In this document: piece by piece, positions 1,739 through 29,755 of the stretch
How the letters are laid out: each line of letters begins with the position of its first letter
Numbering within the stretch: the stretch's first letter is position 1
DNA from: Streptococcus suis
Lineage (GTDB): Bacteria; Bacillota; Bacilli; Lactobacillales; Streptococcaceae
Direction: 5' to 3'
Length of the DNA stretch: 64,000 nucleotides
NCBI GenBank assembly: GCA_022354845.1
Contig: CP031970.1
Coordinates: 806,001-870,000 of the forward strand
Made by a program: the position numbers and the translations under genes
The notes under the pieces: generated by a model
What the model saw: the letters and a program-made list of their open reading frames with translations, nothing else
Told to the model about the DNA's origin: nothing
Database searches by the model: none

Positions 1739-1780
1739 CAAGCAAATGAAAGCATGCGATTATAGACAGGAGGAAATGTT

Positions 1781-5568: not shown

Positions 5569-5584
5569 TATTCTATGACCCTAT

Positions 5585-5613: not shown

Positions 5614-5659
5614 GGACTTGCTTATAAATATAGATGCTTGGATAGCAGGAGGTTGCAAG

Positions 5660-7142: not shown

Positions 7143-7143
7143 C

Positions 7144-7569: not shown

Positions 7570-7740
7570 ATGAAATATTTTGAGGTTGAGTTAGAAAATC
7601 CTGATGAATTTTTAAAACTACAAACAGAAGATTTTGTGAAAGCTAATCGCTTGCTACTAAGGAAGATAATCCAGAGCGTTACAGTCTATGAAGAACACTT
7701 CGTCATATCCTTTAAATCTGGCATCGAATTGGAAGTATGA
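7570..7740 (+). pseudogene. Short chimeric frame ending in a serine recombinase C-terminus
   Basis: 56 codons from an ATG with GAGGGAA upstream. The last about 25 residues (RKIIQSVTVYEEHFVISFKSGIE) are a serine recombinase C-terminus as at 20078-20307, while the first about 30 residues (MKYFEVELENPDEF...) are not recombinase-like and are unrecognised. Likely an in-frame fusion formed by deletion. It abuts the erm(B) promoter, the same arrangement as at 1-109. Confidence 0.55.
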
Positions 7741-7762
7741 GACTCATTCCATAACTTTTATA

Positions 7763-7791
7763 TTGAACATATCATCTTGTTGTGTTATACT
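7763..7791 (+). promoter_or_regulatory. erm(B) promoter
   Basis: TTGAAC (7763-7768), 17 bp, TATACT (7786-7791). It is the homologue of the mef promoter at 81-109. Confidence 0.75.
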
Positions 7792-7848
7792 ATAAATTGA
7801 AGTTAAATTAGATGCTAAAAATTTGTAATTAAGAAGGAGGGATTCGTC

Positions 7849-7944
7849 ATGTTGGTATTCCAAATGCGTTATCAAATGCGTTATGTAGATAAAACATCTA
7901 CTGTTTTGAAACAGACTAAAAACAGTGATTACGCAGATAAATAA
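7849..7944 (+). CDS. erm(B) leader peptide with internal duplication (31 aa)
   Basis: The leader reads MLVFQMRYQMRY followed by VDKTSTVLKQ and so on. The usual leader is 27 residues with one MRY/MRN before VDK. Here the 12 bp CAAATGCGTTAT occur twice in tandem (7861-7872 and 7873-7884), adding QMRY. Drug-dependent ribosome stalling at the VDK region normally controls erm(B) translation, so the stall site is shifted four codons from the start. Confidence 0.85.
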   Translation: MLVFQMRYQMRYVDKTSTVLKQTKNSDYADK

Positions 7945-8068
7945 ATACGTTAGATTAATTCCTACCAGTGACTAATCTTATGACTTTTTAAACAGATAAC
8001 TAAAATTACAAACAAATCGTTTAACTTCTGTATTTGTTTATAGGTGTAATCACTTCAGGAGTGATTAC

Positions 8069-8806
8069 ATGAACAAAAATATAAAATATTCTCAAAACTT
8101 TTTAACGAGTGAAAAAGTACTCAACCAAATAATAAAACAATTGAATTTAAAAGAAACCGATACCGTTTACGAAATTGGAACAGGTAAAGGGCATTTAACG
8201 ACGAAACTGGCTAAAATAAGTAAACAGGTAACGTCTATTGAATTAGACAGTCATCTATTCAACTTATCGTCAGAAAAATTAAAACTGAATACTCGTGTCA
8301 CTTTAATTCACCAAGATATTCTACAGTTTCAATTCCCTAACAAACAGAGGTATAAAATTGTTGGGAATATTCCTTACCATTTAAGCACACAAATTATTAA
8401 AAAAGTGGTTTTTGAAAGCCATGCGTCTGACATCTATCTGATTGTTGAAGAAGGATTCTACAAGCGTACCTTGGATATTCACCGAACACTAGGGTTGCTC
8501 TTGCACACTCAAGTCTCGATTCAGCAATTGCTTAAGCTGCCAGCGGAATGCTTTAATCCTAAACCAAAAGTAAACAGTGTCTTAATAAAACTTACCCGCC
8601 ATACCACAGATGTTCCAGATAAATATTGGAAGCTATATACGTACTTTGTTTCAAAATGGGTCAATCGAGAATATCGTCAACTGTTTACTAAAAATCAGTT
8701 TCATCAAGCAATGAAACACGCCAAAGTAAACAATTTAAGTACCGTTACTTATGAGCAAGTATTGTCTATTTTTAATAGTTATCTATTATTTAACGGGAGG
8801 AAATAA
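8069..8806 (+). CDS. erm(B): 23S rRNA adenine N6-methyltransferase Erm(B)
   Basis: 245 residues, full length. It dimethylates A2058 of 23S rRNA and gives resistance to macrolides, lincosamides and streptogramin B. The SAM motif VYEIGTGKG is at 33-41, acidic E59 and D83 follow, and the catalytic NIPYHLS is at 100-106. AGGAG stands before the ATG. It is followed by the known small frame and the topoisomerase remnant of Inc18-type plasmids. Confidence 0.97.
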
Positions 8807-8810
8807 TTCT

Positions 8811-8942
8811 ATGAGTCGCTTTTGTAAATTTGGAAAGTTACACGTTACTAAAGGGAATGTAGATAAATTATTAGGTATACTACTGACAGCTTCCAAGGAG
8901 CTAAAGAGGTCCCTAGCGCCTACGGGGAATTTGTATCGATAA
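8811..8942 (+). CDS. Small conserved frame downstream of erm(B)
   Basis: 43 codons starting MSRFCKFGKLHVTKGN with GGGAGG upstream, five bases after erm(B). The same frame accompanies erm(B) on many Inc18 plasmids and transposons. Its first part may be the start of a larger lost gene; the C-terminus runs into the palindrome at 8908. Whether it is translated is unknown. Confidence 0.45.
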   Translation: MSRFCKFGKLHVTKGNVDKLLGILLTASKELKRSLAPTGNLYR

Positions 8943-8974
8943 GGGGTACAAATTCCCACTAAGCGCTCGGGACC
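8908..8974. repeat. Long imperfect palindrome downstream of erm(B)
   Basis: The arms GGTCCCTAGCGC ... GCGCTCGGGACC and, inside them, GGGGAATTTGTA ... TACAAATTCCC form a stem of about 30 bp. It marks a junction between the erm(B) segment and the topoisomerase remnant. Its function is not known to me. Confidence 0.65.
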
Positions 8975-8975
8975 C

Positions 8976-9236
8976 CTTGTAGGAAAATGTCCTAAGTGTG
9001 GCAACAATATTGTATTAAAAAAATCGTTTTATGGTTGTTCAAATTATCCTGAATGTACCTTCACTTTAGCTGAACATTTTAGAAAGAAAAAACTCACCAA
9101 AACAAATGTAAAAGAATTACTAGAGGGAAAAGAAACCCTGGTAAAAGGAATCAAAACGAAAGATAGAAAGTCCTACAATGCCGTTGTAAAAATCGGAGAA
9201 AAGGGATATATTGATTTTATCTCTTTTTCAAAATAA
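8976..9236 (+). pseudogene. C-terminal remnant of a type I topoisomerase (Inc18 Top-beta like)
   Basis: The frame opens directly after the palindrome and reads KCPKCGNNIVLKK, then CSNYPEC, a four-cysteine zinc ribbon as found at the C-terminus of topoisomerases. The remaining residues (LEGKETLVKGIKTK.. GYIDFISFSK) fit the plasmid-borne enzyme next to delta-omega. There is no start codon context and the catalytic domain is missing. Confidence 0.7.
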
Positions 9237-9240
9237 GCAT

Positions 9241-9266
9241 AAAAGCCCTTTAAAGAGGGCTTTTAT
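9241..9266 (+). terminator. Terminator after the topoisomerase remnant
   Basis: AAAAGCCCTTTAAAGAGGGCTTTT is a near-perfect hairpin with a T tract. Confidence 0.7.
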
Positions 9267-9271
9267 ATATT

Positions 9272-9334
9272 AATCACAAATCACTTATCACAAATCACAA
9301 GTGATTAATCACAAATCACTTGTGATTTGTGATT
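9272..9334. promoter_or_regulatory. Omega operator of the delta promoter: nine contiguous heptads
   Basis: Nine abutting 7-bp units of the form WATCACW in direct or inverted orientation (AATCACA, AATCACT, TATCACA, AATCACA, AGTGATT, AATCACA, AATCACT, TGTGATT, TGTGATT). This is the binding array of the omega ribbon-helix-helix protein, which both represses these promoters and acts as the centromere for plasmid partition. Confidence 0.93.
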
Positions 9335-9338
9335 CCTA

Positions 9339-10235
9339 ATGATACAATATTACTATACAAAAAAAGAATGGGGCGTAGTTATGGTGAAGGAAGAACTAAA
9401 AATACTTGAAGAATTAAGACGTATTTTAAACAGTAAAAATGAAGCAATTGTTATCTTAAACAATTATTTTAAAGGTGGTGTTGGAAAGTCAAAATTATCG
9501 ACTATGTTTGCTTATTTGACAGACAAATTTAATTTAAAAGTTTTAATGATCGATAAGGACTTACAAGCAACATTGACAAAAGACTTAGCAAAAACATTTA
9601 AGGTAGAATTGCCACGTGTCAATTTTTATGAAGGCTTGAAAAATGGAAACTTGGCTTCTTCTATTATTCATTTGACTGATAATTTAGACTTGATCCCTGG
9701 CACGTTTGATTTGATGTTACTGCCAAAATTAACTCGCTCATGGACGTTTGAAAATGAAAGTAGATTGCTTGCTACTCTTTTAGCACCTTTAAAAAGTGAC
9801 TATGATCTCATTATTATTGATACTGTACCAACGCCAAGCGTTTATACAAATAATGCAATCGTGGCAAGTGATTACGTTATGATCCCTTTACAAGCAGAAG
9901 AAGAAAGTACAAACAACATTCAAAACTATATTTCCTATTTGATTGATTTACAAGAACAGTTTAACCCTGGACTAGATATGATCGGTTTTGTTCCTTATTT
10001 AGTTGATACGGACAGCGCAACGATAAAATCAAACCTGGAAGAACTGTACAAGCAACATAAAGAAGATAACTTGGTTTTCCAAAATATTATCAAGCGAAGT
10101 AATAAAGTAAGTACCTGGTCTAAAAACGGCATTACAGAACACAAAGGCTATGACAAAAAAGTTTTATCCATGTATGAGAACGTATTTTTTGAAATGCTTG
10201 AGCGAATCATTCAATTAGAAAACGAAAAAGAATAG
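9339..10235 (+). CDS. delta: ParA-type partition ATPase delta (PrgP-like)
   Basis: 298 residues from ATG 9339; a later start at MVKEEL (9381) is possible. The deviant Walker A KGGVGKS is at 45-51 and LIIIDTVPTP is the Walker B region. From the pSM19035/Inc18 family, delta works with omega to segregate plasmids. Here the genes are in a chromosome without a replication gene in view, so partition has no obvious role. Confidence 0.92.
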   Translation: MIQYYYTKKEWGVVMVKEELKILEELRRILNSKNEAIVILNNYFKGGVGKSKLSTMFAYLTDKFNLKVLMIDKDLQATLTKDLAKTFKVELPRVNFYEGLKNGNLASSIIHLTDNLDLIPGTFDLMLLPKLTRSWTFENESRLLATLLAPLKSDYDLIIIDTVPTPSVYTNNAIVASDYVMIPLQAEEESTNNIQNYISYLIDLQEQFNPGLDMIGFVPYLVDTDSATIKSNLEELYKQHKEDNLVFQNIIKRSNKVSTWSKNGITEHKGYDKKVLSMYENVFFEMLERIIQLENEKE

Positions 10236-10284
10236 AATCACAAATCACAAGTGATTAATCACAAATCACTTGTGATTTGTGATT
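10236..10284. promoter_or_regulatory. Omega operator of the omega promoter: seven heptads
   Basis: Seven abutting heptads (AATCACA, AATCACA, AGTGATT, AATCACA, AATCACT, TGTGATT, TGTGATT). The numbers nine and seven match those described for the delta and omega promoters of pSM19035. Confidence 0.92.
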
Positions 10285-10326
10285 GTTGATGATAAAATAA
10301 GAATAAGAAGAAATAGAAAGAAGTGA

Positions 10327-10542
10327 GTGATTGTGGGAAATTTAGGCGCACAAAAAGCAAAACGAAATGATACACCAATCAGTGCAAAAAAAGATATAAT
10401 GGGAGATAAGACGGTTCGTGTTCGTGCTGACTTGCACCATATCATAAAAATCGAAACAGCAAAGAATGGCGGAAACGTAAAAGAAGTTATGGATCAAGCC
10501 TTAGAAGAATATATACGGAAATATTTACCTGACAAACTTTAA
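10327..10542 (+). CDS. omega: Omega regulator / centromere-binding protein
   Basis: 71 residues, starting at GTG 10327 behind AGAAGTGAG. It is a small ribbon-helix-helix repressor: the strand KTVRVRADLHH (about 29-39) is followed by two helices. Sequence is essentially the known omega protein. It would repress its own promoter and that of delta, and in the parent plasmid also the epsilon-zeta toxin-antitoxin genes. Confidence 0.95.
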   Translation: MIVGNLGAQKAKRNDTPISAKKDIMGDKTVRVRADLHHIIKIETAKNGGNVKEVMDQALEEYIRKYLPDKL

Positions 10543-10559
10543 AAGGAGTGAAAATGAAA

Positions 10560-10610
10560 TGGCAGTTACGTATGAAAAAACATTTGAAATAGAGATGTCT
10601 TTAATATGAA
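10560..10610 (+). pseudogene. epsilon: Truncated epsilon antitoxin (first 12 codons)
   Basis: The frame MAVTYEKTFEIE begins 18 bp after omega with AAGGAGTG in front, exactly the start of the epsilon antitoxin. At 10596 the sequence switches to the mef upstream region (homologous to 304 onward), and the frame stops four codons later. The rest of epsilon and the zeta toxin are absent, so the plasmid addiction module is dead. Confidence 0.85.
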
Positions 10611-10629
10611 TGTTTCCAAATTGTATGTA

Positions 10630-10672
10630 TGCAGACCAAAAGCCACATTGTGGGGTTTGGCCTGCATTTTTT
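10630..10672 (+). terminator. Hairpin with T tract upstream of mef copy 2
   Basis: Same hairpin as at 339-381. In this copy neither the leader peptide nor its promoter is present, so the hairpin now stands between the omega promoter and mef. Confidence 0.7.
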
Positions 10673-10734
10673 ATTGCCTAGAATGCTATTCAAAATAGAA
10701 ATTCAAGCAAAATAATATGCAGGAGATAATATAA

Positions 10735-11952
10735 ATGGAAAAATACAACAATTGGAAACTTAAGTTTTATACAATATGGGCAGGGCAAGCACTATCATTA
10801 ATCACTAGTGCCATCTTGCAAATGGCGATTATTTTTTACCTTACAGAAAAAACTGGATCCGCGATGGTCTTGTCTATGGCTTCACTATTAGGTTTTTTAC
10901 CCTATGCGGTCTTTGGACCTGCAATTGGTGTGCTAGTGGATCGTCATGATAGGAAGAAGATAATGATTGGTGCTGATTTAATTATCGCAGCAGCTGGTTC
11001 GGTGCTTACTATTGTTGCATTCTATATGGAGCTACCTGTCTGGATGGTTATGATAGTATTGTTTATCCGTAGCATTGGAACAGCTTTTCACACCCCGGCT
11101 CTCAATGCGGTTACGCCACTTTTAGTACCAGAAGAACAGCTTACGAAATGTGCAGGCTATAGTCAGTCTTTGCAGTCTATAAGCTATATTGTTAGTCCGG
11201 CGGTTGCAGCACTCTTATACTCCGTTTGGGAACTAAATGCTATTATTGCCATCGATGTATTGGGTGCTGTGATTGCATCTATTACGGTAGCAATTGTACG
11301 TATTCCTAAGCTGGGTGATCGAGTGCAAAGTTTGGAACCAAATTTCATAAGAGAAATGAAAGAAGGAATTGTCGTTCTGAGACAAAACAAAGGATTGTTT
11401 GCCTTATTACTCGTTGGAACATTATATATGTTTGTTTATATGCCAATTAATGCACTATTCCCTTTAATAAGCATGGATTACTTTAATGGAACACCTGTGC
11501 ATATTTCTATTACGGAAATTTCCTTTGCATCTGGAATGTTGATAGGGGGTCTATTATTAGGGTTATTTGGGAATTACCAAAAGCGAATCTTATTAATAAC
11601 GGCATCCATTTTTATGATGGGGATAAGCTTAACCATTTCAGGATTACTTCCCCAAAGTGGATTTTTCATTTTTGTAGTCTGCTGTGCAATAATGGGGCTT
11701 TCTGTTCCGTTTTACAGCGGTGTGCAAACAGCTCTTTTTCAGGAGAAAATTAAGCCTGAATATTTAGGACGTGTATTTTCTTTAACTGGAAGTATCATGT
11801 CTCTTGCTATGCCAATTGGATTAATTCTTTCTGCACTCTTTGCTGATAGAATCGGTGTAAATCATTGGTTTTTACTATCAGGTATTTTAATTATTTGCAT
11901 TGCAATAGTTTGCCCAATGATAACTGAGATTAGAAAATTAGATGCAAAATAA
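10735..11952 (+). CDS. mef(E): Macrolide efflux MFS transporter, Mef(E) type (copy 2)
   Basis: 405 residues, full length and intact, with DRHDRKK at 69-75. It is over 90% like copy 1, with the differences clustered at residues about 258-310 (GLFGNYQKRILLITAS..) and near residue 375 (ALFADRIG). These variant residues agree with what I recall of Mef(E). The homologous segment begins at 10596, well upstream of the gene. No msr(D) follows; the next DNA is the aminoglycoside cluster, joined a few bases after the stop. Expression would depend on readthrough from omega. Confidence 0.92.
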   Translation: MEKYNNWKLKFYTIWAGQALSLITSAILQMAIIFYLTEKTGSAMVLSMASLLGFLPYAVFGPAIGVLVDRHDRKKIMIGADLIIAAAGSVLTIVAFYMELPVWMVMIVLFIRSIGTAFHTPALNAVTPLLVPEEQLTKCAGYSQSLQSISYIVSPAVAALLYSVWELNAIIAIDVLGAVIASITVAIVRIPKLGDRVQSLEPNFIREMKEGIVVLRQNKGLFALLLVGTLYMFVYMPINALFPLISMDYFNGTPVHISITEISFASGMLIGGLLLGLFGNYQKRILLITASIFMMGISLTISGLLPQSGFFIFVVCCAIMGLSVPFYSGVQTALFQEKIKPEYLGRVFSLTGSIMSLAMPIGLILSALFADRIGVNHWFLLSGILIICIAIVCPMITEIRKLDAK

Positions 11953-11971
11953 AATAAAGGAGTGTGTTCGT

Positions 11972-12841
11972 ATGATATATAATATTATTCAATCAGTGAC
12001 AGAAAAATTATCCTCTTTGCCTTATATAGAAGGCATCGTATTAGGGGGCTCACGTGCAAGAGGCACCCATACATAGGATTCTGATATAGATATCGGAATC
12101 TATTACAATTCAGAATCATTTGACCTGACAGCGATTAATCAAATTGCTACAGAATTGGATGATGAGAATAGAAACGACCTTGTTGTACCTCCCGGAGCGT
12201 GGGGTGATTGGATTAATGGCGGCGGATGGTTATTTATAAATGGGTATCATGTTGACTTGATTTTACGTGATATAAAACGGGTAGAACAAATAATCAAAGA
12301 TACGGAGCAAGGAATTGTTACTGCCAATTATCAGACCGGGCATCCCCATGGTTATATAAGTGCAATGTATCGTGGAGAATTAGCGATTAGTAAAATACTA
12401 TATGCTAAGAACGAAAGCTTATGCGAATTAAAAAAGCAGGCAGAAATTTACCCTACTGCTCTAAAGAAAAGCTTGATGAACTTTTTTATATTTGAAGCTG
12501 AATTCTCTTTAATGTTTGTAAAAGCAAATGCGGGGGTAGAGGATAAATATTATATTGCAGGCCATGTTTTTCGTATTATTTCATGCTTAAATCAAGTACT
12601 ATTTGCATGTAATAATGCTTATTGCATTAACGAAAAGAAAGCTATAAAACTGCTTGAAACTTTTGAATATAAACCTGAAAAATATGCCGAAAGAGTTAAT
12701 CATATTTTTGAAGTACTCGGTCTTTCTCTTTTTGAATGCTACGATATGACCGAGAAACTTTATAAAGAAGTGAATGAAATTGTATCGGAGATAAATAACT
12801 TTTTAAACGAGGAGAGTTCAGATGAAAGAAAACAAATATGA
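11972..12841 (+). pseudogene. Nucleotidyltransferase-domain protein with early nonsense codon
   Basis: The full frame would encode 289 residues from ATG 11972 (AAGGAGTG upstream). It starts MIYNIIQSVTEK and has the nucleotidyltransferase core GGSRARGT, but codon 35 is TAG (12074-12076), directly before the catalytic DSDIDIG. The usual protein has Glu here, so a single GAG-to-TAG change is likely. Re-initiation at 12155 would give 228 residues without the active site. It is the usual first gene of the ant(6)-sat4-aph(3') cluster. Confidence 0.85.
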
Positions 12842-13556
12842 TGATAATATATTTTTTCAAAAATACAGTCAAATGAGTCGCTCGCAGAAAGGACTGGCTG
12901 GTGCGGGAGAATGGGAGACTTTGAAAAAGATGCTACCTGATTTTAAGGGTAAGCGTGTGCTTGATTTAGGATGCGGCTATGGATGGCACTGTATATATGC
13001 GATGGAAAACGGTGCTTCCTCTGTAGTAGGTGTTGATATTTCTCATAAAATGCTCGAAGTAGCAAAAGGAAAAACCCATTTTCCACAGATTGAATATGAA
13101 TGCTGTGCCATAGAAGATGTGGATTTCCCAGAGGAGAGCTTTGATGTAATACTAAGTTCGCTTGCGTTTCATTATGTAGCAGACTATGAGAATTTAATAA
13201 AAAAGATATATAGGATGCTGAAGGCTGGTGGCAATTTAGTTTTTACAGTTGAACATCCTGTTTTTACTGCTCATGGAACACAAGACTGGTATTATAACGA
13301 AAAAGGAGAAATACTGCATTTCCCGGTGGACAATTATTATTATGAGGGCAAACGGACAGCTATGTTTTTGGAAGAAAAGGTTACAAAATATCATAGAACA
13401 CTGACCACATATCTAAATACACTGCTTTCAAATAGTTTTATAATAAATCAGATTGTGGAGCCACAGCCGCCAGAGAACATGATGGATATTCCGGGGATGG
13501 CGGATGAAATGCGACGCCCAATGATGCTGATTGTATCGGCAAAAAAGAAGATGTAA
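12822..13556 (+). CDS. Class I SAM-dependent methyltransferase
   Basis: 244 residues. SAM motif I RVLDLGCGYGWH is at 45-56, GVDIS at about 68 and SSLAFHYV about 115. Start ATG 12822 lies inside the end of the preceding frame (20 bp overlap), behind GAGGAG. It is a fixed companion of the ant(6)/sat4/aph(3') cluster in enterococci, staphylococci and streptococci, but its substrate is not known to me. Confidence 0.85.
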   Translation: MKENKYDDNIFFQKYSQMSRSQKGLAGAGEWETLKKMLPDFKGKRVLDLGCGYGWHCIYAMENGASSVVGVDISHKMLEVAKGKTHFPQIEYECCAIEDVDFPEESFDVILSSLAFHYVADYENLIKKIYRMLKAGGNLVFTVEHPVFTAHGTQDWYYNEKGEILHFPVDNYYYEGKRTAMFLEEKVTKYHRTLTTYLNTLLSNSFIINQIVEPQPPENMMDIPGMADEMRRPMMLIVSAKKKM

Positions 13557-13588
13557 TAATATAGAAAAAATAAACGAGGAGTATGTAA

Positions 13589-14497
13589 ATGAGATCAGAA
13601 AAAGAAATGATGGATTTAGTACTTTCTTTAGCAGAACAGGATGAACGTATTCGAATTGTGACCCTTGAGGGGTCACGCGCAAATATTAATATACCTAAAG
13701 ATGAATTTCAGGATTATGATATTACATATTTTGTAAGTGATATAGAACCGTTTATATCTAATGATGACTGGCTTAATCAATTTGGGAATATAATAATGAT
13801 GCAAAAGCCGGAGGATATGGAATTATTCCCACCTGAAGAAAAGGGATTTTCCTATCTTATGCTATTTGATGATTACAATAAAATTGATCTTACCTTATTG
13901 CCCTTGGAAGAGTTAGATAATTACCTAAAGGGCGATAAATTAATAAAGGTTCTAATTGATAAAGATTGTAGAATTAAAAGGGACATAGTTCCGACTGATA
14001 TAGATTATCATGTAAGAAAGCCAAGCGCAAGGGAGTATGATGATTGCTGCAATGAATTTTGGAATGTAACACCTTATGTTATTAAAGGATTGTGCCGTAA
14101 GGAAATTTTATTTGCTATTGATCATTTTAATCAGATTGTTCGCCATGAGCTGCTGAGAATGATATCATGGAAGGTCGGCATCGAAACAGGCTTTAAATTA
14201 AGTGTAGGCAAGAACTATAAGTTTATTGAAAGGTATATATCCGAGGATTTGTGGGAGAAACTTTTGTCCACCTACCGGATGGATTCCTATGAAAACATAT
14301 GGGAAGCATTATTTCTATGCCATCAATTGTTCAGGGCGGTATCCGGTGAGGTGGCGGAAAGGCTTCATTATGCCTATCCGGAGTATGATAGGAATATAAC
14401 AAAATATACCAGGGACATGTATAAAAAATACACTGGTAAAACCGGCTGCCTGGATAGCACATATGCCGCTGATATAGAAGAGAGGCGGGAACAGTGA
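13589..14497 (+). CDS. ant(6)-Ia: Aminoglycoside 6-nucleotidyltransferase ANT(6)-Ia
   Basis: 302 residues, the normal length. It adenylylates streptomycin at position 6. The active-site pattern GSR (28-30) followed by D42 and D44 of QDYDITYFV is intact. GAGGAG lies before the start. Its TGA overlaps the GTG of sat4 by four bases, showing translational coupling in the cluster. Confidence 0.95.
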   Translation: MRSEKEMMDLVLSLAEQDERIRIVTLEGSRANINIPKDEFQDYDITYFVSDIEPFISNDDWLNQFGNIIMMQKPEDMELFPPEEKGFSYLMLFDDYNKIDLTLLPLEELDNYLKGDKLIKVLIDKDCRIKRDIVPTDIDYHVRKPSAREYDDCCNEFWNVTPYVIKGLCRKEILFAIDHFNQIVRHELLRMISWKVGIETGFKLSVGKNYKFIERYISEDLWEKLLSTYRMDSYENIWEALFLCHQLFRAVSGEVAERLHYAYPEYDRNITKYTRDMYKKYTGKTGCLDSTYAADIEERREQ

Positions 14498-15041
14498 TTA
14501 CAGAAATGAAAGCAGGGCACCTGAAAGATATCGATAAACCCAGCGAACCATTTGAGGTGATAGGTAAGATTATACCGAGGTATGAAAACGAGAATTGGAC
14601 CTTTACAGAATTACTCTATGAAGCGCCATATTTAAAAAGCTACCAAGACGAAGAGGATGAAGAGGATGAGGAGGCAGATTGCCTTGAATATATTGACAAT
14701 ACTGATAAGATAATATATTATATCTTTACTACCAAGACGATAAATGCGTCGGAAAAGTTAAACTGCGAAAAAATTGGAACCGGTACGCTTATATAGAAGA
14801 TATCGCCGTATGTAAGGATTTCAGGGGGCAAGGCATAGGCAGCGCGCTTATCAATATATCTATAGAATGGGCAAAGCATAAAAACTTGCATGGACTAATG
14901 CTTGAAACCCAGGACAATAACCTTATAGCTTGTAAATTCTATCATAATTGTGGTTTCAAAATCGGCTCCGTCGATACTATGTTATACGCCAACTTTGAAA
15001 ACAACTTTGAAAAAGCTGTTTTCTGGTATTTAAGGTTTTAG
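14494..15041 (+). pseudogene. sat4: Streptothricin acetyltransferase sat4, frameshifted
   Basis: The N-terminal half reads MITEMKAGHLKDIDKPSEPF (GTG start) up to KIIYYIF. A 5-bp insertion of TATTA type at about 14713-14722 (ATAATATATTATATCTTTAC instead of the expected ATAATATATCTTTAC) shifts the frame, which stops at 14796. The C-terminal half (RYAYIEDIAVCKDFRGQGIG, the acetyl-CoA site, to FWYLRF) continues in another frame. The whole is 548 bp, five more than the usual 543. The protein would lack the acetyl-CoA binding half. Confidence 0.88.
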
Positions 15042-15133
15042 AATGCAAGGAACAGTGAATTGGAGTTCGTCTTGTTATAATTAGCTTCTTGGGGTATCTT
15101 TAAATACTGTAGAAAAGAGGAAGGAAATAATAA

Positions 15134-15928
15134 ATGGCTAAAATGAGAATATCACCGGAATTGAAAAAACTGATCGAAAAATACCGCTGCGTAAAAGATA
15201 CGGAAGGAATGTCTCCTGCTAAGGTATATAAGCTGGTGGGAGAAAATGAAAACCTATATTTAAAAATGACGGACAGCCGGTATAAAGGGACCACCTATGA
15301 TGTGGAACGGGAAAAGGACATGATGCTATGGCTGGAAGGAAAGCTGCCTGTTCCAAAGGTCCTGCACTTTGAACGGCATGATGGCTGGAGCAATCTGCTC
15401 ATGAGTGAGGCCGATGGCGTCCTTTGCTCGGAAGAGTATGAAGATGAACAAAGCCCTGAAAAGATTATCGAGCTGTATGCGGAGTGCATCAGGCTCTTTC
15501 ACTCCATCGACATATCGGATTGTCCCTATACGAATAGCTTAGACAGCCGCTTAGCCGAATTGGATTACTTACTGAATAACGATCTGGCCGATGTGGATTG
15601 CGAAAACTGGGAAGAAGACACTCCATTTAAAGATCCGCGCGAGCTGTATGATTTTTTAAAGACGGAAAAGCCCGAAGAGGAACTTGTCTTTTCCCACGGC
15701 GACCTGGGAGACAGCAACATCTTTGTGAAAGATGGCAAAGTAAGTGGCTTTATTGATCTTGGGAGAAGCGGCAGGGCGGACAAGTGGTATGACATTGCCT
15801 TCTGCGTCCGGTCGATCAGGGAGGATATCGGGGAAGAACAGTATGTCGAGCTATTTTTTGACTTACTGGGGATCAAGCCTGATTGGGAGAAAATAAAATA
15901 TTATATTTTACTGGATGAATTGTTTTAG
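15134..15928 (+). CDS. aph(3')-IIIa: Aminoglycoside 3'-phosphotransferase APH(3')-IIIa
   Basis: 264 residues, complete. It phosphorylates kanamycin, neomycin and relatives. The catalytic loop HGDLGDSN (about 188-195) and the metal-binding FIDLGRSG (about 206) are intact. GAGGAAGG lies upstream. GC content rises within this gene compared with its neighbours. It closes the cluster and is followed by a strong hairpin. Confidence 0.97.
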   Translation: MAKMRISPELKKLIEKYRCVKDTEGMSPAKVYKLVGENENLYLKMTDSRYKGTTYDVEREKDMMLWLEGKLPVPKVLHFERHDGWSNLLMSEADGVLCSEEYEDEQSPEKIIELYAECIRLFHSIDISDCPYTNSLDSRLAELDYLLNNDLADVDCENWEEDTPFKDPRELYDFLKTEKPEEELVFSHGDLGDSNIFVKDGKVSGFIDLGRSGRADKWYDIAFCVRSIREDIGEEQYVELFFDLLGIKPDWEKIKYYILLDELF

Positions 15929-19917: not shown

Positions 19918-20077
19918 ATTTTACTAGTCGCGGTAGAATAGGATTGTATAGAAGAATACAAAAGTGAGGTGAGATTATGAAGAAGGTAGAAGAAATGGAA
20001 TATACCTATCATTTTATATAGAAGAGAACCCTTCCAAGCTAGACTGTAGATACTCTGAGTCTAATGATTAAGCATAG

Positions 20078-20307
20078 CAGAGGAGATTGATGAGCTGAGA
20101 GACAAGCGACAAATCCTTTTAGTAGAAGATGCCTCCTTCAGTGGTGAGAACGAGCGAATCAACGAACTGATTGAATTTATCCGCACCAATAAATATCGGA
20201 CTTTACTCTATGATGATACCCTTGTAAGGAAGATCATCCAAAATGTTACGGTGTGTGGTGACCACTTTGTCATATCCTTTAAATCTGGTATTGAAATTGA
20301 AATATGA
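20078..20307 (+). pseudogene. Serine recombinase C-terminal remnant (copy A)
   Basis: The frame EIDELRDKRQILLVEDASFS ... VRKIIQNVTVCGDHFVISFKSGIE..I ends at 20307. It has the helical C-terminal domain only; the catalytic N-terminal and recombinase domains are missing. Confidence 0.7.
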
Positions 20308-20334
20308 AAACCAGAAGTAAATAGCCCATGACTC

Positions 20335-20361
20335 TGAAGTAGAGTTGTGGGTTTTCTTTTG
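20335..20361 (+). terminator. Terminator after recombinase copy A
   Basis: CCCATGACTCT pairs with AGAGTTGTGGG and is followed by TTTTCTTTT. The same hairpin lies at 25157-25191. Confidence 0.65.
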
Positions 20362-20450
20362 CTTGTTGATTATAATAATATTTTTATAACTATTGTACTT
20401 ATCAACCAAATGGGTTTATAATATTATTAGCGTAAACTTGGAGATGCTGT

Positions 20451-20675
20451 ATGACTACGGCAGAAATGATTAAAGAACTGTGTGAGCAAATGAATATAAG
20501 TGTTTCCGAACTTGCTAGACGTATTGGACAGACACCACAAAATTTCAATAAAAAATTACAACGAGAAACAGTAACCTTGGATGAGTTGAAAGCCATCGCT
20601 GATGTGCTAGGTGTCAAGTTTGAGCAGGCATTTATTTCACCAGGTGGGAATGAGATAAATATATCTAATGAATAA
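20451..20675 (+). CDS. XRE-family helix-turn-helix regulator (copy A)
   Basis: 74 residues with the HTH ISVSELARRIGQTPQNFNKK (about 15-34). A promoter TTGTAC-18 bp-TATAAT (20393-20422) precedes it. The paralogue at 25283 differs at about ten positions. This small regulator is a frequent cargo of Tn916/Tn1549-related elements, where it sits after the recombinase. After this copy the frame that follows the other copy (80 aa, 25523) is missing; only its ribosome binding site AAAGGAGG remains. Confidence 0.75.
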   Translation: MTTAEMIKELCEQMNISVSELARRIGQTPQNFNKKLQRETVTLDELKAIADVLGVKFEQAFISPGGNEINISNE

Positions 20676-24828: not shown

Positions 24829-24860
24829 AAGAGCTCATCAGTGCTACCTTTTCATCTATG

Positions 24861-25507
24861 CTAGACTGTAGATACTCTGAGTCTAATGATTAAGCACAGC
24901 AGATAAGATTGATGAGCTGAGAGACAAGCGACAGACCCTTTTAGTAGAAGATGCCTCCCTCAGTAGCGAGAACGAGCGAATCAATGAGCTGATTGAATTT
25001 ATCCGCAAGAACAAATTCCGTGCCTTAGAGTACGATGATAAGCTTGTAAGGAAGATAATCCAGAGTGTTACAGTCTATGAAGAACACTTTGCATATCCAT
25101 TAGCATATCCTTTAAATCTGGTATTGAAATTGAAATATGAAAACCAGAAGTAAATAGCCCATGACTCTACAGTAGAGTTGTGGGTTTTCTTTGCTTGTTG
25201 ACAATAATAATATTTTTATAACTATTGTGCTTATCAACCAAATGGGTTTATAATATTATTAGCGTAAACTTGGAGATGCTGTATGACTACGGCAGAAATG
25301 AATAAAGAACTGTGTGAGCAAATGAATATAAGTGTTTCCGAACTTGCTAGACGTATTGGTCAGACACCACAAAATTTCAACAAGAAATTGAAGCGAGAAA
25401 CAGTAACCTTTGATGATTTGAAAACCATCGCAGATGTACTGGGTGTCAGGTTTGAGCAGTCTTTTATTTTACCAGACGGAGAAGAAATAAAAATATCTAA
25501 CGAATAA
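24861..25507. repeat. Direct repeat B
   Basis: Counterpart of 20039-20675. Includes a more damaged recombinase C-terminal fragment (about 24900-25139, with an insertion after GAACACTTT that breaks HFVISF), the terminator 25157-25191 and the second XRE gene. Confidence 0.85.
25283..25507 (+). CDS. XRE-family helix-turn-helix regulator (copy B)
   Basis: 74 residues, MTTAEMNKELCEQ start, HTH SVSELARRIGQTPQNFNKK. It leads an operon with the 81-residue gene and the Crp/Fnr regulator: the next start is 16 bp away. Confidence 0.75.
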   Translation: MTTAEMNKELCEQMNISVSELARRIGQTPQNFNKKLKRETVTFDDLKTIADVLGVRFEQSFILPDGEEIKISNE

Positions 25508-25522
25508 AGGAGGCGGTCTAAT

Positions 25523-25768
25523 ATGATGATTAGTCCGGAAAGTTACTATGAAGAGTATCTCAAAGGAAAAACAAAGGAAGAAATAATGACCGCCATCCGA
25601 GGACTTAAGCTAGAAATACGACGTCTAAAAAGTACACTGGAAAATCCTGACTATGATGATAACGCAATTATTCATCCGGATAAGTTTACTTACATTTACT
25701 GGACTCGTGGGTACTTGGAAAAAGCTAAAGAGACCTTAAGAGAGAATATGAAAGGGGCATTCAAATGA
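25523..25768 (+). CDS. Conserved small protein of mobile elements
   Basis: 81 residues (ATG 25523 or 25526), AAAGGAGG upstream. Charged and helical, starting MISPESYYEEYLKGKTKEEI. The same type of gene follows XRE regulators in Tn916/Tn1549-like elements; its function is unknown. Its stop overlaps the next ATG (ATGA), so the Crp/Fnr gene is translationally coupled. Confidence 0.65.
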   Translation: MMISPESYYEEYLKGKTKEEIMTAIRGLKLEIRRLKSTLENPDYDDNAIIHPDKFTYIYWTRGYLEKAKETLRENMKGAFK

Positions 25769-26529
25769 AAAAAAAAGATTTGATGCATGAAATTAAAAAT
25801 CAATGTATAGAAAAACAAGGGTATCACGATGTTACTCACACTCATCATCAAGGACATGAGTCAGCTTCACACGCTTCATGTATCACTGTAGTTCCGATCT
25901 TTAATCATTTAGAAGGAGAACAGATGGATGAAATTATGAAAGTAACGAAATCGACCTCTTTTAAAAAGGGTGAAGTAATTTACCGAGAGGGAGATATATC
26001 CGACTTGTTATATATTGTAAGTAAAGGGAAAATTCGAATTTACCGTTTGTCTGAATCAGGAAAAGAACAATTAGTGAGAATATTAAATCCAGGCGATTTC
26101 ACGGGAGAGCTTGCCTTGTTCCGCGAATCAATTCAGGAAGCATATGCAGAAGCAATGAGTGATACCGATGTATGTATGATTAGTAGAAATGATTTACAAG
26201 AATTTTTATTAAAGTACCCTACTATATCTTTGAAGATTTTATCGGAATTCTCTAACCGATTAGAAACATCAGAAAAACAAACAACTAGATTTGCCACAGA
26301 GAAGGTAGATACTAGATTAGCACTGTTTCTTGCAGAATGCATGGAAAGCGGAGATGTTCCAATGGAAATTGAATTGCCAATGAGTAAGAAGGACTTAGCC
26401 TCTTATCTAGGAACTACTCCAGAAACTATTAGTAGAAAGTTAGCTGACCTTGAAAATGAAGGATGTATAAAACAAAAATCAGGTAGAAAGATTGAGATTT
26501 TGGATTTAGATGGATTGTTGTTGGTATAG
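25765..26529 (+). CDS. Crp/Fnr-family transcriptional regulator with His/Cys-rich N-terminus
   Basis: 254 residues. Residues 1-40 are unusual: C14, the run HDVTHTHHQGHESASHASC with six His, and C39. Then a cyclic-nucleotide-binding-type beta barrel (about 45-165: FKKGEVIYREGD, GDFTGELALF) and a Crp HTH (about 205-240: MSKKDLASYLGTTPETISRK). Further Cys occur at the barrel end and HTH. The HTH recognition helix is close to Fnr-like readers of TTGAT-N4-ATCAA, and two such sites lie in the next 3.2 kb. The N-terminus suggests metal, redox or NO sensing; ligand is inference. Confidence 0.85.
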   Translation: MKKKDLMHEIKNQCIEKQGYHDVTHTHHQGHESASHASCITVVPIFNHLEGEQMDEIMKVTKSTSFKKGEVIYREGDISDLLYIVSKGKIRIYRLSESGKEQLVRILNPGDFTGELALFRESIQEAYAEAMSDTDVCMISRNDLQEFLLKYPTISLKILSEFSNRLETSEKQTTRFATEKVDTRLALFLAECMESGDVPMEIELPMSKKDLASYLGTTPETISRKLADLENEGCIKQKSGRKIEILDLDGLLLV

Positions 26530-26590
26530 ATGTGATAATATAAAGTAAAATAGTAGTAATAATTATTAAAACATTTAAAAAAGACTAAAC

Positions 26591-26604
26591 TTGATTTAGA
26601 TCAA
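26591..26604. promoter_or_regulatory. FNR-type operator 1 (TTGATTTAGATCAA)
   Basis: A perfect TTGAT-N4-ATCAA palindrome. A -10 element TATTAT (26627-26632) puts the start site near 26639, so the operator centre (26597.5) is at -41.5, the standard class II activator position. Confidence 0.8.
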
Positions 26605-26678
26605 TTTAATTTCGTTCAATCTATAGTATTATATAACCAAGATAAAGAAAAAATAAAACAAGAAAGAAGGAAAAAAAT

Positions 26679-27017
26679 ATGTCAAGAGAATTAAATTTTA
26701 ATCAAGTAAAGGAAACTCATTTAAAAACATTAGCACAATATGTTCCAGTTGTAGCAAAAGTTCATGGAGGAAATCATCCAGAATTCTACCAGGTTCGTAA
26801 AGTATATGATGAACTTGCAAAGAATGCAAAAGATGCGGGAGTAGAAAAGCCGGACTTAAAAGAGGAGTTTGTAAAATTACGTGAAATCACAGATAATTAT
26901 ACAGTTCCAGGTGATGTATGCGAAAGTTATGAAGCAGTATATAACATGTTAGCAGAATTAGATAAAGCATATGAAGCATACAAGAAAACAAACAAAGCAA
27001 TGAAAAGATATAAATAA
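26679..27017 (+). CDS. Small Ric/ScdA-like protein
   Basis: 112 residues with AGAAGGAA before the ATG. The segment LAQYVPVVAKVHGGNHPEF (about 18-36) resembles iron-sulfur-cluster repair di-iron proteins (RIC/ScdA/YtfE), which protect against nitric oxide. The complete hemerythrin-like set of HxxxE motifs is not seen, so this is either a stand-alone domain or a different small family. It is first in the operon controlled by operator 1, 17 bp before the ATPase. Confidence 0.5.
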   Translation: MSRELNFNQVKETHLKTLAQYVPVVAKVHGGNHPEFYQVRKVYDELAKNAKDAGVEKPDLKEEFVKLREITDNYTVPGDVCESYEAVYNMLAELDKAYEAYKKTNKAMKRYK

Positions 27018-27033
27018 TCTAATAGGGAGGAGT

Positions 27034-28893
27034 ATGAATATGCAAAATTTTATATTAGGAAGAAAAAACCATATTACAATAGTAAGTGCAATTTTAATAA
27101 TAATTGCATTTGTCAGTAAATTAGGCTTCGAAAACGAACAAATAGCCATATGGGCATTAGTAATTGCTTCAATTTTGGGAGTTTCACCTATTGCGATTCA
27201 AGCGTATCAAGCATTAAAAGTCAAAGTAGTTAGTATTGATGTTTTAGTTACCATTGCAGTTATCGGAGCCTTTATAGTTAGAAACTACGAAGAATCAGCA
27301 ATTGTTACATTTTTATTTCTATTTGGAGCTTTTCTAGAACAAAGGACACTTAATAAAACACGTTCTGCAATTAAAGAATTAACTCAAATGGCACCAGAAA
27401 GTGCCTTAAAACAAGTGGAAAATGGTGAGTTTGAAGAAGTAGAAATAGATGAAGTTGATGTAGGAGATATTTTGCTTGTTAAAACGGGTGCAAAAATCCC
27501 AGTTGACGGTACAGTGTTAACAGGAGAAGGGCATATTAATGAAGCAAGTATTACAGGAGAAGCGGTTCCTGTAAGTAAAAAGAAAGATTCTGGGGTATAT
27601 GCCGGAACAATTTTAGAAAATGGAACTATTCAAATCACTGCTGATCGTGTAGGTGAGAATACTACTTTTGGTAAAATCATTGAGTTGGTTGAAGAAGCAC
27701 AGGATTCAAAATCAGAAGCAGAACGTTTCATTGATAGATTTTCTAAATACTACACACCAGCTGTTTTAGTTCTCTCTTTTATTGTATGGATATTTTCAAG
27801 GGATATTGAACTTGCAATTACAATATTAGTTTTAGGATGTCCAGGAGCATTGGTAATCGGTGTACCCGTTTCAAACGTCGCGGGGATTGGCAATGGAGCA
27901 CGTCATGGAGTCCTTCTAAAAGGTAGCGAGGTTATTAGTGACTTTAGCAGACTAGATACCATGGTATTTGACAAAACAGGCACATTAACAATAGGAAATC
28001 CCAAAGTAGCTGATAAAGAAATTTATACAGATAATGTAGATGAAGTATTAGGGTATCTAGCAAGTGTTGAAAAGGAATCAGATCATCCATTAGCAAAAGC
28101 AATTGTAGAATACATTGGAGATATAAAATTATATACAGTTGAAAAAACAGATGTTGTAAAAGGTGGAGGAATTGTAGCTCATGTAGAAGGTCATAAAGTT
28201 GCAGTCGGTAATGTGGCACTAATGGAGCAAGAAAATATTCTTTTAAGTGAAAAAGCTCGTGCAGATATTGCCAGATTTGAGAAAAATGGAAATTCACTTG
28301 TTTTAACATCAGTTGATGGTGAATTAAAAGCATTGATGGGTATTCGTGATCAAATTCGCCCGGGTGTAAAAGATGATCTTAAAAAGTTGAAAAAACTTGG
28401 TGTTAAAAATCTAGTAGTTCTTTCTGGTGATAACCAAGGAACAGTTGATTTAGTAGCACGTGAACTAGGACTTACAGAAGCTCATGGACATATGTTGCCA
28501 GAAGATAAAGCAACATATATTAAAGAGTTACAAGAAAAAGGTCAAATCGTGGCATTTGTTGGAGATGGAGTAAATGATAGTCCTTCACTAGCTCTAGCAC
28601 AAATTGGAATTGCTATGGGAAATGGAACAGATGTAGCAATTGAAACTTCAGATGTTGTTTTAATGAATTCAGATTTCAGCCGCTTGCCACATGCATTAGG
28701 TTTAACAAAAGCAACCGCTAATAACATGCTTCAAAATATTATTATTGCAGTAGGGGTTGTATTAGTCCTTCTTGCCAGCGTATTCTTTAGTGAATGGATG
28801 AACATGTCAATCGGTATGTTAGTACATGAAGCAAGTATATTAGTAGTGATTTTAAATGGTATGAGACTTCTTCACTATAAATTAAGAAAATAA
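27034..28893 (+). CDS. Heavy-metal P-type ATPase (P1B) with CPG motif
   Basis: 619 residues, AGGGAGG upstream. Motifs: TGEAVPV (about 174), CPGALVIG (C269-P-G271) in the transport helix, phosphorylation site DKTGTLT (D313), SDHPLAKA (about 350), GDGVNDSP (about 510), and HEASILVVILNGMRLL at the end. There is no N-terminal metal-binding domain; a separate CxxC protein is encoded downstream. The usual metal motif is CPC, CPH or SPC, so CPG gives no clear specificity. It should export a soft or transition metal (or another ligand) from the cytoplasm. Confidence 0.9.
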   Translation: MNMQNFILGRKNHITIVSAILIIIAFVSKLGFENEQIAIWALVIASILGVSPIAIQAYQALKVKVVSIDVLVTIAVIGAFIVRNYEESAIVTFLFLFGAFLEQRTLNKTRSAIKELTQMAPESALKQVENGEFEEVEIDEVDVGDILLVKTGAKIPVDGTVLTGEGHINEASITGEAVPVSKKKDSGVYAGTILENGTIQITADRVGENTTFGKIIELVEEAQDSKSEAERFIDRFSKYYTPAVLVLSFIVWIFSRDIELAITILVLGCPGALVIGVPVSNVAGIGNGARHGVLLKGSEVISDFSRLDTMVFDKTGTLTIGNPKVADKEIYTDNVDEVLGYLASVEKESDHPLAKAIVEYIGDIKLYTVEKTDVVKGGGIVAHVEGHKVAVGNVALMEQENILLSEKARADIARFEKNGNSLVLTSVDGELKALMGIRDQIRPGVKDDLKKLKKLGVKNLVVLSGDNQGTVDLVARELGLTEAHGHMLPEDKATYIKELQEKGQIVAFVGDGVNDSPSLALAQIGIAMGNGTDVAIETSDVVLMNSDFSRLPHALGLTKATANNMLQNIIIAVGVVLVLLASVFFSEWMNMSIGMLVHEASILVVILNGMRLLHYKLRK

Positions 28894-28898
28894 AATTC

Positions 28899-28912
28899 TT
28901 GATTTAAATCAA
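28899..28912. promoter_or_regulatory. FNR-type operator 2 (TTGATTTAAATCAA)
   Basis: A perfect TTGAT-N4-ATCAA palindrome starting six bases after the ATPase stop. The -10 TATAAT (28935-28940) puts the start near 28947, again placing the operator centre (28905.5) at -41.5. Confidence 0.8.
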
Positions 28913-28972
28913 TTTATTATAGATAATAATAGTATATAATACAATTAACATAGACTAAAGGAGAGATGAAAA

Positions 28973-29206
28973 ATGCAAAAAGCAACAATTCAATTAGAAA
29001 CATTAACATGTCCATCATGTATGCAAAAAATAGAGAATGGTGTGAAATCTTTGGACGGGGTAAGTAAAGAAAGTTTAAAAGTACTATTTAATTCAAGCAA
29101 GGTGAGGGTGGAATTTGACGATGAAAAAGTATCTATAAAAGATATTGAAAATGCCATCGATAAATTAGGATATGAAGTTATGAAATCTCAAGTAAAAGCT
29201 TTATAA
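28973..29206 (+). CDS. Heavy-metal-associated (HMA) domain protein
   Basis: 77 residues with GGAGAG upstream. The ferredoxin-like HMA fold has LETLTCPSCMQKIE with C13 and C16 as the metal ligands. It probably delivers metal to, or regulates, the ATPase encoded just upstream, which lacks this domain. It has its own Fnr-type promoter, so it can be made in excess of the pump. Confidence 0.88.
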   Translation: MQKATIQLETLTCPSCMQKIENGVKSLDGVSKESLKVLFNSSKVRVEFDDEKVSIKDIENAIDKLGYEVMKSQVKAL

Positions 29207-29755
29207 AATAAGAGGGAATAAGTTTAGTTTTAATGATATCAGATGCTGGTTAATGTCATCTACGGTAAAGGACACAGTTACCAAGTTATAGTGTCGTTGA
29301 TATCTTCCCACACAAGAAAGCCCACAGTGGATATGTTCTCACAAAGAGAATTTCTGATAAAAATATTTTGGTTACTAGTATTTGACAGCTATAACTTCCG
29401 CTCAAGTCATGTTGAGGTAGGTGCTCTGCTGGTGAAAGCCTAGAAACCTTTGAACGAAAGGGATAATGAAAAGCCTTGATTGTAAGGCTTTTTTTCTTTT
29501 GGGTGGGGAAGTATCAAAGTGAGAAAATTTTAGGAATGAGTAGAAGTAATAGGACGAACTCTTTTTAGACTGGTCGAGTTCTTTCCCACTCCCAGTCTAC
29601 ATGGAAATCAATCTGGCTTATCTATCCTGAACGAAAAATGTTTTTAAATTTTCTTATTTCAATGAAATAACTGAATAAGTTTAACTTGAGTCAGTTGAGT
29701 GTAGGCATTTACTTTCAAAAACAAATATTAAGGATATACCACAAGGAGGTGTGCT
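29207..29755. pseudogene. Methyltransferase-like stubs and terminator at the element-chromosome junction
   Basis: The region contains VDIFPHT (from 29296), VDMFSQ (from 29327) and, at 29405-29443, SHVEVGALLVKA with TAG. Then a terminator on AAAGCCTTGATTGTAAGGCTTTT (about 29471-29495). About 110 bp here match 7169-7285. I place the right border of the accessory region in this stretch. After 29520 nothing is recognised until 29756. Confidence 0.5.

What the first reader, a model, noticed from the sequence alone, without database searches (positions are those of the whole stretch)
25283..29206. Self-contained Crp/Fnr regulon with Ric-like protein, CPG-type P1B ATPase and free metallochaperone
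Four linked genes combine a Crp/Fnr regulator with a His/Cys-rich N-terminus, a small protein resembling iron-sulfur repair proteins, a metal pump without its own metal-binding domain, and a separate CxxC HMA protein. All lie in a mobile region. The combination suggests a redox-, NO- or metal-sensing export and repair system, which I do not recognise as a named one.
Basis: partly seen in the sequence, partly recalled or inferred. Interest (0 to 1): 0.78.

Follow-up and report, generated by a model that had tools for sequence, protein, structure and literature searches.

The report
Mobile Fnr-controlled metal-pump gene module
Four linked genes in a mobile stretch of a bacterial chromosome form a widespread, apparently undescribed metal-export module, switched by an oxygen- or redox-type regulator and accompanied by a small protein that looks like an iron-repair protein but has lost its iron site.

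Summary
The four genes are real and form a conserved module: FLP/FNR-type regulator, small Ric-like protein, P1B ATPase, CxxC chaperone. Of 79 Ric-bearing Lactobacillales loci, 32 hold all four and 48 a CPG pump; of 80 further genome loci, 71 have the pump beside ric. Of 88 Lactobacillales genomes with ric, 87 carry the pump's CPG motif.

Both window promoters carry a perfect TTGAT-N4-ATCAA box with a -10 exactly 22 nt downstream, as in FNR-activated class II promoters; 57 of 81 non-redundant related promoters fit. The genome holds a second, diverged copy.

The pumps form one clade with Cys-Pro-Gly in helix M4 but His-Glu-x-Ser in M6, as in P1B-4 iron/cobalt pumps. The 'Ric' resembles RIC proteins but lacks their six di-iron ligands.

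Best reading: FNR/FLP-activated efflux of a transition metal, perhaps Fe(II). The metal is unproven; NO and haem roles are unsupported. New variant of a known kind; a FlpA 'metal homeostasis' regulon was already predicted in lactic acid bacteria.

The parts
25765..26529 (+). Crp/Fnr-family regulator of FLP type, 254 aa: His-rich N-terminus (HTHHQGHESASHASC), Cys39 and Cys137 conserved in relatives, no FNR four-Cys set
26591..26604 (+). perfect FNR-type box TTGATTTAGATCAA in front of ric-pump
26627..26632 (+). -10 hexamer TATTAT, 22 nt after the box (box centre then at about -41.5)
26679..27017 (+). mini-Ric: 112-aa RIC-like protein, predicted four helices, without the di-iron ligands; most relatives counted are 100 aa or shorter, this copy has 12 extra C-terminal residues
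27034..28893 (+). P1B-type metal ATPase, 619 aa, M4 CPG, M6 HEAS, HP motif, no N-terminal metal-binding domain
28899..28912 (+). perfect FNR-type box TTGATTTAAATCAA in front of the chaperone gene
28935..28940 (+). -10 hexamer TATAAT, 22 nt after the box
28973..29206 (+). free HMA-domain protein (metallochaperone type), 77 aa, TCPSC
25523..25768 (+). 81-aa frame of unknown function (no Pfam match), overlapping the regulator's start by 4 bases; probably co-transcribed with it
   Evidence: co-transcription inferred
24902..25153 (+). open frame matching the C-terminal end of longer recombinase-like frames at the same place in other copies of the cassette (flank, not part of the mechanism)
   Evidence: recombinase named by eye, no NCBIfam match at E 1e-10

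Best explanation
A horizontally mobile metal-efflux module. SHOWN by sequence: the regulator belongs to the Crp/Fnr family; ric-pump and chaperone gene each sit behind a class II-type FNR promoter; pump, Ric-like protein, chaperone and regulator are co-inherited; the pumps form one clade with a distinctive membrane site (C269 in M4; M591, M595, H598, E599, S601 in M6). INFERRED: on oxygen limitation or thiol reduction, or on metal binding by its Cys/His-rich N-terminus, the FLP-type regulator binds the boxes and activates transcription; the HMA protein hands a cytoplasmic transition metal to the pump, which has no metal-binding domain of its own; the pump expels it using ATP. Because M6 is like that of P1B-4 pumps and control is of an anaerobic type, Fe(II) is my first guess for the cargo (about 0.4 given metal export), before Zn/Cd, Cu(I) and Co/Ni. 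The mini-Ric, placed between promoter and pump, is inferred to be a helper that has lost the RIC iron site and works as a metal- or pump-binding partner through its near-invariant H29/H33/E35/C81. The confidence is for FNR/FLP-activated export of some transition metal, whichever it is.
For: Linkage: 79 loci: 32 with all four genes, 48 with the CPG pump; 71 of 80 with CPG pump; 87 of 88 ric genomes carry the CPG motif; Fisher p about 1e-39, kinship not corrected. Control: 59 perfect boxes in front of module genes and 9 elsewhere in 54 loci (window among them), 2.05 expected in all 549 kb by base shuffling; -10 exactly 22 nt downstream in 138 of 172 unique stretches, and in 57 of 81 after thinning, next best offset 16; whole-genome scan. 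Pump: (of 70 frames over 400 bits, 70 CPGAL; 68 HExSI, 2 without the motif or partial); tree and site. Chaperone: PF00403 53.1 bits over cut-off 24.8; CxxC in 120 of 120 unique relatives over 70 bits, CPSC in 110. Regulator: Cys39 in 60 and Cys137 in 61 of 61 rows, the one gap being a truncated-looking frame. Iron hints: Dps-like gene in 11 loci (cluster; annotated as such); SPC/HEGST (P1B-4 type) ATPase frames in 9 fetched loci, 7 of them with the CPG pump.
Against: No metal, phenotype or expression datum. The Cys-Pro-Gly site with a CxxC chaperone fits soft metals (Cu, Zn, Cd) at least as well as iron. A class II promoter (box with up to one mismatch) is found in 48 of 55 pump loci of the first set but only 23 of 71 of the genome contigs set and 0 of 4 archaeal ones, so this control is not universal. 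Perfect boxes also lie at other places of the genome without the spacing (19 places in all). The window's regulator lacks the four-Cys iron-sulfur set, so oxygen sensing is not implied; in S. suis FlpS, a different FLP, changing one Cys had no effect on its target (PMC5039431, passages). 78 of 165 CPG genomes have no detected ric and the plasmid versions L039-L042 have none, so ric is not essential to the pump.
Confidence: 0.68

Rival explanations
1. Ordinary soft-metal (Cu(I), Zn(II) or Cd(II)) resistance cassette of CopZ/CopA or CadA logic, placed under an FNR-like switch because these metals can be more toxic without oxygen; Ric-like protein incidental. (Overlaps with the best explanation as to export; differs in cargo and in the role of ric.)
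For: CxxC HMA protein just passes the copper-ion-binding model TIGR00003 (63 against 62 bits); on two annotated Enterococcus plasmids the module sits beside CadD and ArsR genes, on one also a CDF transporter and a second metal pump; a free chaperone recalls CopZ.
Against: M6 has neither the Met/Ser site of the copper rows nor the D-x-G of the Zn/Cd rows of the same alignment; no CopY/CsoR/CadC-type regulator in the module; CopZ-specific models are below cut-off (60 against 91, 46 against 95); 87 of 88 ric genomes carry the pump motif, so ric hardly looks incidental.
Confidence: 0.3
2. Nitrosative-stress module: the regulator responds to NO, mini-Ric handles NO or iron freed from damaged clusters, the pump removes the freed iron.
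For: RIC relatives are tied to NO and nitrite (PMC12412097 and PMC9268430, passages); an NO-type Crp/Fnr regulator (DNR) is among the matched chains.
Against: The six ScdA ligands, each needed for its nitrite reduction, are missing in mini-Ric; among the 45 largest neighbourhood clusters I recognised by eye no hcp, hmp or nor gene (no family search was run on them).
Confidence: 0.12
3. Chance neighbours: cargo assembled by mobile elements without shared function.
For: Recombinase-like remnant, direct repeats and transposase-type frames flank the genes here or in relatives.
Against: Same genes linked in changing orders in many genera, shared promoter architecture, resident diverged copy.
Confidence: 0.02

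Closest known systems
P1B-4 ATPases (PmtA of S. suis and S. pyogenes, Fe(II)/Co(II) export)
   Same: no N-terminal metal-binding domain; His-Glu-x-Ser in M6; the genome has its own SPC/HEGST pump (L004) after a frame that I read by eye as Fur/PerR-like
   Different: M4 is Cys-Pro-Gly instead of Ser-Pro-Cys; two Met in M6 that no SPC row has; separate clade; free HMA partner; FNR-type promoters. PmtA papers: listing, abstract start and passages in reviews only
CopZ/CopA copper systems and ZntA/CadA pumps
   Same: P1B pump with a CxxC HMA partner
   Different: membrane site lacks the copper or Zn/Cd signature; different regulator
RIC proteins (YtfE, ScdA)
   Same: sequence profile match and predicted fold, VHG-x-x-HP motif and a Cys aligned with ScdA C191
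   Different: about 100 aa, no N-terminal ScdA domain, without the six di-iron ligands
FlpA regulon of lactic acid bacteria (Ravcheev 2013) and FLP regulators of L. casei, L. lactis, FlpS of S. suis
   Same: FNR-like regulator with two Cys; FlpA is filed under metal homeostasis
   Different: member genes of that regulon could not be read here (no supplement look-ups allowed), so identity is untested; FlpS controls arginine deiminase
E. coli FNR
   Same: box and class II promoter geometry (recalled for FNR; measured here); four of the five clostridial-set N-termini outside the recent cassette have C-x2-C-x5-C plus the distal Cys
   Different: 0 of 35 unique N-termini in the Lactobacillales/plasmid group have it; many are His-rich instead

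Membership tests
P1B-type heavy-metal ATPase | family model TIGR01525 over its cut-off; HP and DKTGT motifs; CPx in M4 | tested here: met
   556.3 bits against 346.25; SDHPL, DKTGTLT, CPG
P1B-4 subgroup | Ser-Pro-Cys in M4 (motif recalled; seen in nine rows) | tested here: not met
   CPG in 70 of 70 frames over 400 bits, 26 of 26 in the tree set
P1B-4 subgroup | His-Glu-Gly-Ser-Thr type motif in M6 | tested here: inconclusive
   His, Glu and Ser kept; here HEASI, relatives HE[AGSLV]SI
P1B-1 (Cu) and P1B-2 (Zn/Cd) | CPC in M4 with the Met/Ser or the D-x-G site in M6 (motifs recalled; seen in two rows each) | tested here: not met
RIC di-iron repair proteins | six di-iron ligands (ScdA H87, H132, E136, H167, H211, E215) | tested here: not met
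   aligned columns are mostly N, A, K (180, 189, 170 of 258); H at the first in 4 of 258; 191 of 258 chains are 100 aa or shorter, ending before the last two; H-x3-E in the last 30 residues in 5 of 258
RIC di-iron repair proteins | hemerythrin-like fold of RIC | tested here: met
RIC di-iron repair proteins | NCBIfam TIGR03652 cut-off | tested here: not met
   48.4 against 204.7
FNR ([4Fe-4S] type) | four Cys, C-x2-C-x5-C plus distal Cys | tested here: not met
   window regulator has C14, C39, C137, C192, C234 but no such N-terminal motif
FLP (two-Cys FNR-like) | one N-terminal and one distal Cys about 98 apart (spacing of known FLPs recalled) | tested here: met
   98 in the window; 96-99 in 60 of 60 rows that have the first Cys
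FNR-type class II promoter | TTGAT-N4-ATCAA centred near -41.5 | tested here: met
   both window promoters by -10 position; start sites not measured
FlpA metal-homeostasis regulon | same regulator and target genes as reconstructed in 2013 | not testable with these tools
   main text only
CopZ copper chaperone | CopZ-specific model cut-off | tested here: not met
   60 against 91 and 46 against 95; general TIGR00003 63 against 62 met

The most novel reading that the evidence does not exclude
The CPG/HExS pumps are a distinct, undescribed P1B subclass with a new cargo-site chemistry, and the mini-Ric is a new kind of metallochaperone or pump subunit, made from a RIC by losing the di-iron site and keeping an H-x3-H-x-E plus Cys site; within the same module the regulator changed from an iron-sulfur FNR in clostridia to a His/Cys FLP in lactic acid bacteria.
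Probability: 0.35. Interest if true: 0.82.

Novelty: new variant of a known kind. Interest (0 to 1): 0.62.

Why it matters
If right, about 42% of sampled Lactobacillales genomes (165 of 395) and about 9% of sampled Bacillota (26 of 299) carry a metal-pump motif whose cargo I found named nowhere, in some cases on plasmids beside other metal and drug resistance genes. It would link anaerobic-type gene control to metal export, give a clear test of what RIC-fold proteins do without iron, and correct the automatic label 'iron-sulfur cluster repair di-iron protein' on the short members.

Tried and rejected
Rejected: HTH gene 25283-25507 as a module member (it follows the recombinase-like frame). Defence system: no PADLOC match for ric, pump, chaperone or the 81-aa frame; the regulator's hits are to cNMP-binding and HTH-bearing models, all weak. 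Phage origin: no near match in phage records; one relative of the pump in viral contigs. Near identity in plasmids: no record covers 80% of the stretch. Haem or NO: no supporting gene recognised.

Weak spots: the one-mismatch box count in the window is at chance level; the expectation used base shuffling, not dinucleotides; with up to one mismatch the whole-genome box-plus-spacing pattern gives 21 matches against 8 for the reversed pattern. Of 103 match places (counted by eye), 80 stretches were fetched, 79 with a ric frame of at least 55 aa; those left out are mostly second copies, partial or weak. Of 274 genome relatives the tool kept the best 80; nine of these 80 counted as ric alone, two of which (L140, L141) have a pump frame cut by the contig end. 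The 258 ric sequences come from these loci and the best 120 of 1364 search hits, so they lean towards close relatives. The pump tree flags long branches. The first structure model had pLDDT 71, the second 79; Foldseek gave no match at E 0.001 for either.

Literature: ten answered searches. PMC3616900: section 12 and passages; PMC10654040, PMC12412097, PMC9268430, PMC5039431, PMC4628341, PMC7563783, PMC9331361: passages only; the rest listings. FNR promoter geometry, FLP cysteine spacing and the P1B subgroup motifs are recalled.
Full report
WHAT IS THERE. Four + strand genes: a Crp/Fnr-family regulator (25765-26529), a small Ric-like protein (26679-27017), a P1B-type ATPase without N-terminal metal-binding domain (27034-28893) and a free HMA protein with TCPSC (28973-29206). 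The finding's first gene, 25283-25507, is a Cro/C1-type HTH frame that is duplicated at 20451-20675 inside a longer direct repeat (20033-20649 against 24855-25481, 85-98% in three pieces) and follows a recombinase-like frame in related copies; I leave it out. The host genome (G000, 2.03 Mb) looks like Streptococcus suis; that name is my inference, helped only by a named S. suis contig with the cassette at 95%.

CONSERVED MODULE. An alignment of 16 Ric-like proteins found matches in 88 of 395 Lactobacillales genomes. I fetched 80 stretches of 103 match places. Of the 79 with a ric frame, 32 hold regulator, ric, CPG pump and HMA; 13 lack only the regulator; 48 have the CPG pump in all; 23 have ric alone. 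Gene order varies, which argues that the genes belong together by function. In one scan of species genomes 274 places encode relatives; of the best 80, 71 have a CPG pump next to ric, among them clostridia, a Paenibacillus, a Haloplasmataceae bacterium and four archaeal records (three of Methanomicrobiales or Methanoculleus); 9 count as ric alone, two of them with a pump frame cut by the contig end. At genome level 87 of 88 ric genomes carry the pump's CPG motif, while 78 of 165 CPG genomes show no ric (Fisher p about 1e-39, kinship not corrected). So ric implies the pump but not the reverse: ric looks like a helper of the pump.

MOBILITY. Stretch 25128-29416, or a large part of it, recurs at 94-98% in Hathewaya massiliensis, Fusibacter tunisiensis, Enterococcus aquimarinus, Globicatella sulfidifaciens, Clostridium records and S. 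suis HCJ31, which speaks for recent transfer between classes. More distant versions (78% in the pump) lie on Enterococcus, Ligilactobacillus and Lactococcus plasmids; the four that I looked at (L039-L042) have regulator, HMA and pump but no ric frame, and the three annotated ones have a Dps-like gene in front. The window's genome also holds a resident, diverged quartet near 1.18 Mb (protein identities: pump 65%, HMA 53%, regulator 37%, ric 34%). Of 147 sampled genomes of the same genus, own included, 6 have such a pump at E 1e-200.

CONTROL. The window has two perfect TTGAT-N4-ATCAA boxes, one in front of ric-pump and one in front of the HMA gene, and no other in 64 kb. In 54 loci, the window among them, 59 perfect boxes lie in front of module genes and 9 elsewhere, with 2.05 expected in all. 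Of 172 unique box stretches (up to one mismatch), 138 have a -10-like hexamer (5 of 6 or better) exactly 22 nt after the box; shuffling gives 22 on average for any of five offsets. After thinning to 81, 57 fit and the next best offset has 16. That is the spacing of a box centred at -41.5, the class II activator position of FNR (recalled). The whole genome has six perfect box-plus-spacing matches: two here, two in the resident copy, one the opposite strand of a resident box, one elsewhere. Limits: perfect boxes without regard to spacing lie at 19 places of the genome, against 2 for the reversed pattern, and three Crp-type HTH domains pass the Pfam cut-off, so the boxes may serve other regulators too; 48 of 55 pump loci in the first set but only 23 of 71 in the second, and 0 of 4 archaeal ones, have such a promoter.

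REGULATOR. Cys39 is kept in 60 and Cys137 in 61 of 61 related rows, 96-99 residues apart. Of the five clostridial-set N-termini outside the recent cassette, four have C-x2-C-x5-C plus the distal Cys, as in iron-sulfur FNR; none of 35 unique N-termini in the Lactobacillales/plasmid group do, and 15 of them have three or more His in the 15 residues before the Cys. The module may thus record a change from an iron-sulfur sensor to a thiol or metal sensor. Whether the window's protein senses oxygen, thiol state or metal is open.

PUMP. It passes TIGR01525 (556 against 346 bits). In a 42-row tree the 26 CPG pumps form one group with full support, apart from 9 SPC (P1B-4), 2 CPC-DxG (Zn/Cd), 2 CPC (Cu) and 3 CPH rows; the tree flags long branches, so its deeper joins are unsure. 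Site residues C269, M591, M595, H598, E599 and S601 are kept in 26 of 26; H598, E599 and S601 are shared with all nine SPC rows, the two Met with none of them (one CPC-DxG row has the first). This mixture is why I place the cargo among first-row metals and put Fe(II) first, without proof; the CxxC chaperone pulls towards softer metals.

MINI-RIC. Sequence profile (E 4e-9) and, less strongly, the predicted fold tie it to ScdA and YtfE. ScdA's six di-iron residues are H87, H132, E136, H167, H211 and E215. In 258 unique mini-Ric sequences the matching columns are mostly N, A and K, and 191 chains end before the last two; H29 (257), H33 (256), E35 (258) and C81 (258) are near invariant. C81 equals ScdA C191 by the alignment. 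The label 'di-iron' given to these short proteins in databases is therefore not supported. What the kept residues do is unknown; a metal- or pump-binding role is my inference.

LITERATURE. A FlpA regulon is listed under metal homeostasis in a 2013 reconstruction for lactic acid bacteria (PMC3616900); its gene list was not readable here, so part of this module may already be predicted there. A review of streptococcal metal transport names PmtA, CopA, ZccE and others; the words FNR, Crp and P1B do not occur in its main text. I saw no description of CPG-type pumps in the searches named in Tried and rejected.

VERDICT. Observation confirmed; interpretation partly supported. A conserved, mobile, FNR/FLP-activated metal-export module of a new variant type; cargo and the role of mini-Ric are the open questions.

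Noticed in passing
window 444-15928: Cluster of drug-resistance genes by NCBIfam models over cut-off: two Mef(A) copies (89% identical), an Msr-type ABC-F, CatA, Erm(B), ANT(6), APH(3')-IIIa; also a ParA-like frame below cut-off. Described only.
   Followed up: partly
window 20033-20649 and 24855-25481: Direct repeat with an HTH frame flanks a 4.8-kb segment holding a photolyase-like and a DUF523/DUF1722-like frame (named by eye, no call); in Vagococcus (L134) a copy of the repeat lies on each side of the four-gene module.
   Followed up: partly
L109 4862-7997 (G000 near 1.18 Mb): Resident diverged copy of the quartet with promoters of the same geometry; an IS3-like frame (by eye) beside it.
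   Followed up: yes
L039, L040, L041: Gene annotated as DNA starvation/stationary phase protection protein directly upstream of the module's regulator on Enterococcus and Ligilactobacillus plasmids; L040 also carries optrA, cadD and a second metal pump of SPC type.
   Followed up: no
L073 (G303:C2): Repeated HMA-ric pairs (HMA-ric-HMA-ric-HMA) in the same stretch as the pump.
   Followed up: no
window 26679-27017: This ric copy ends 12 residues later than nearly identical copies elsewhere (100 aa, for example L130); effect unknown.
   Followed up: no
G000 whole genome: 19 perfect TTGAT-N4-ATCAA places against 2 for the reversed pattern; only four belong to the two modules, so a wider FNR-like regulon may exist.
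   Followed up: no
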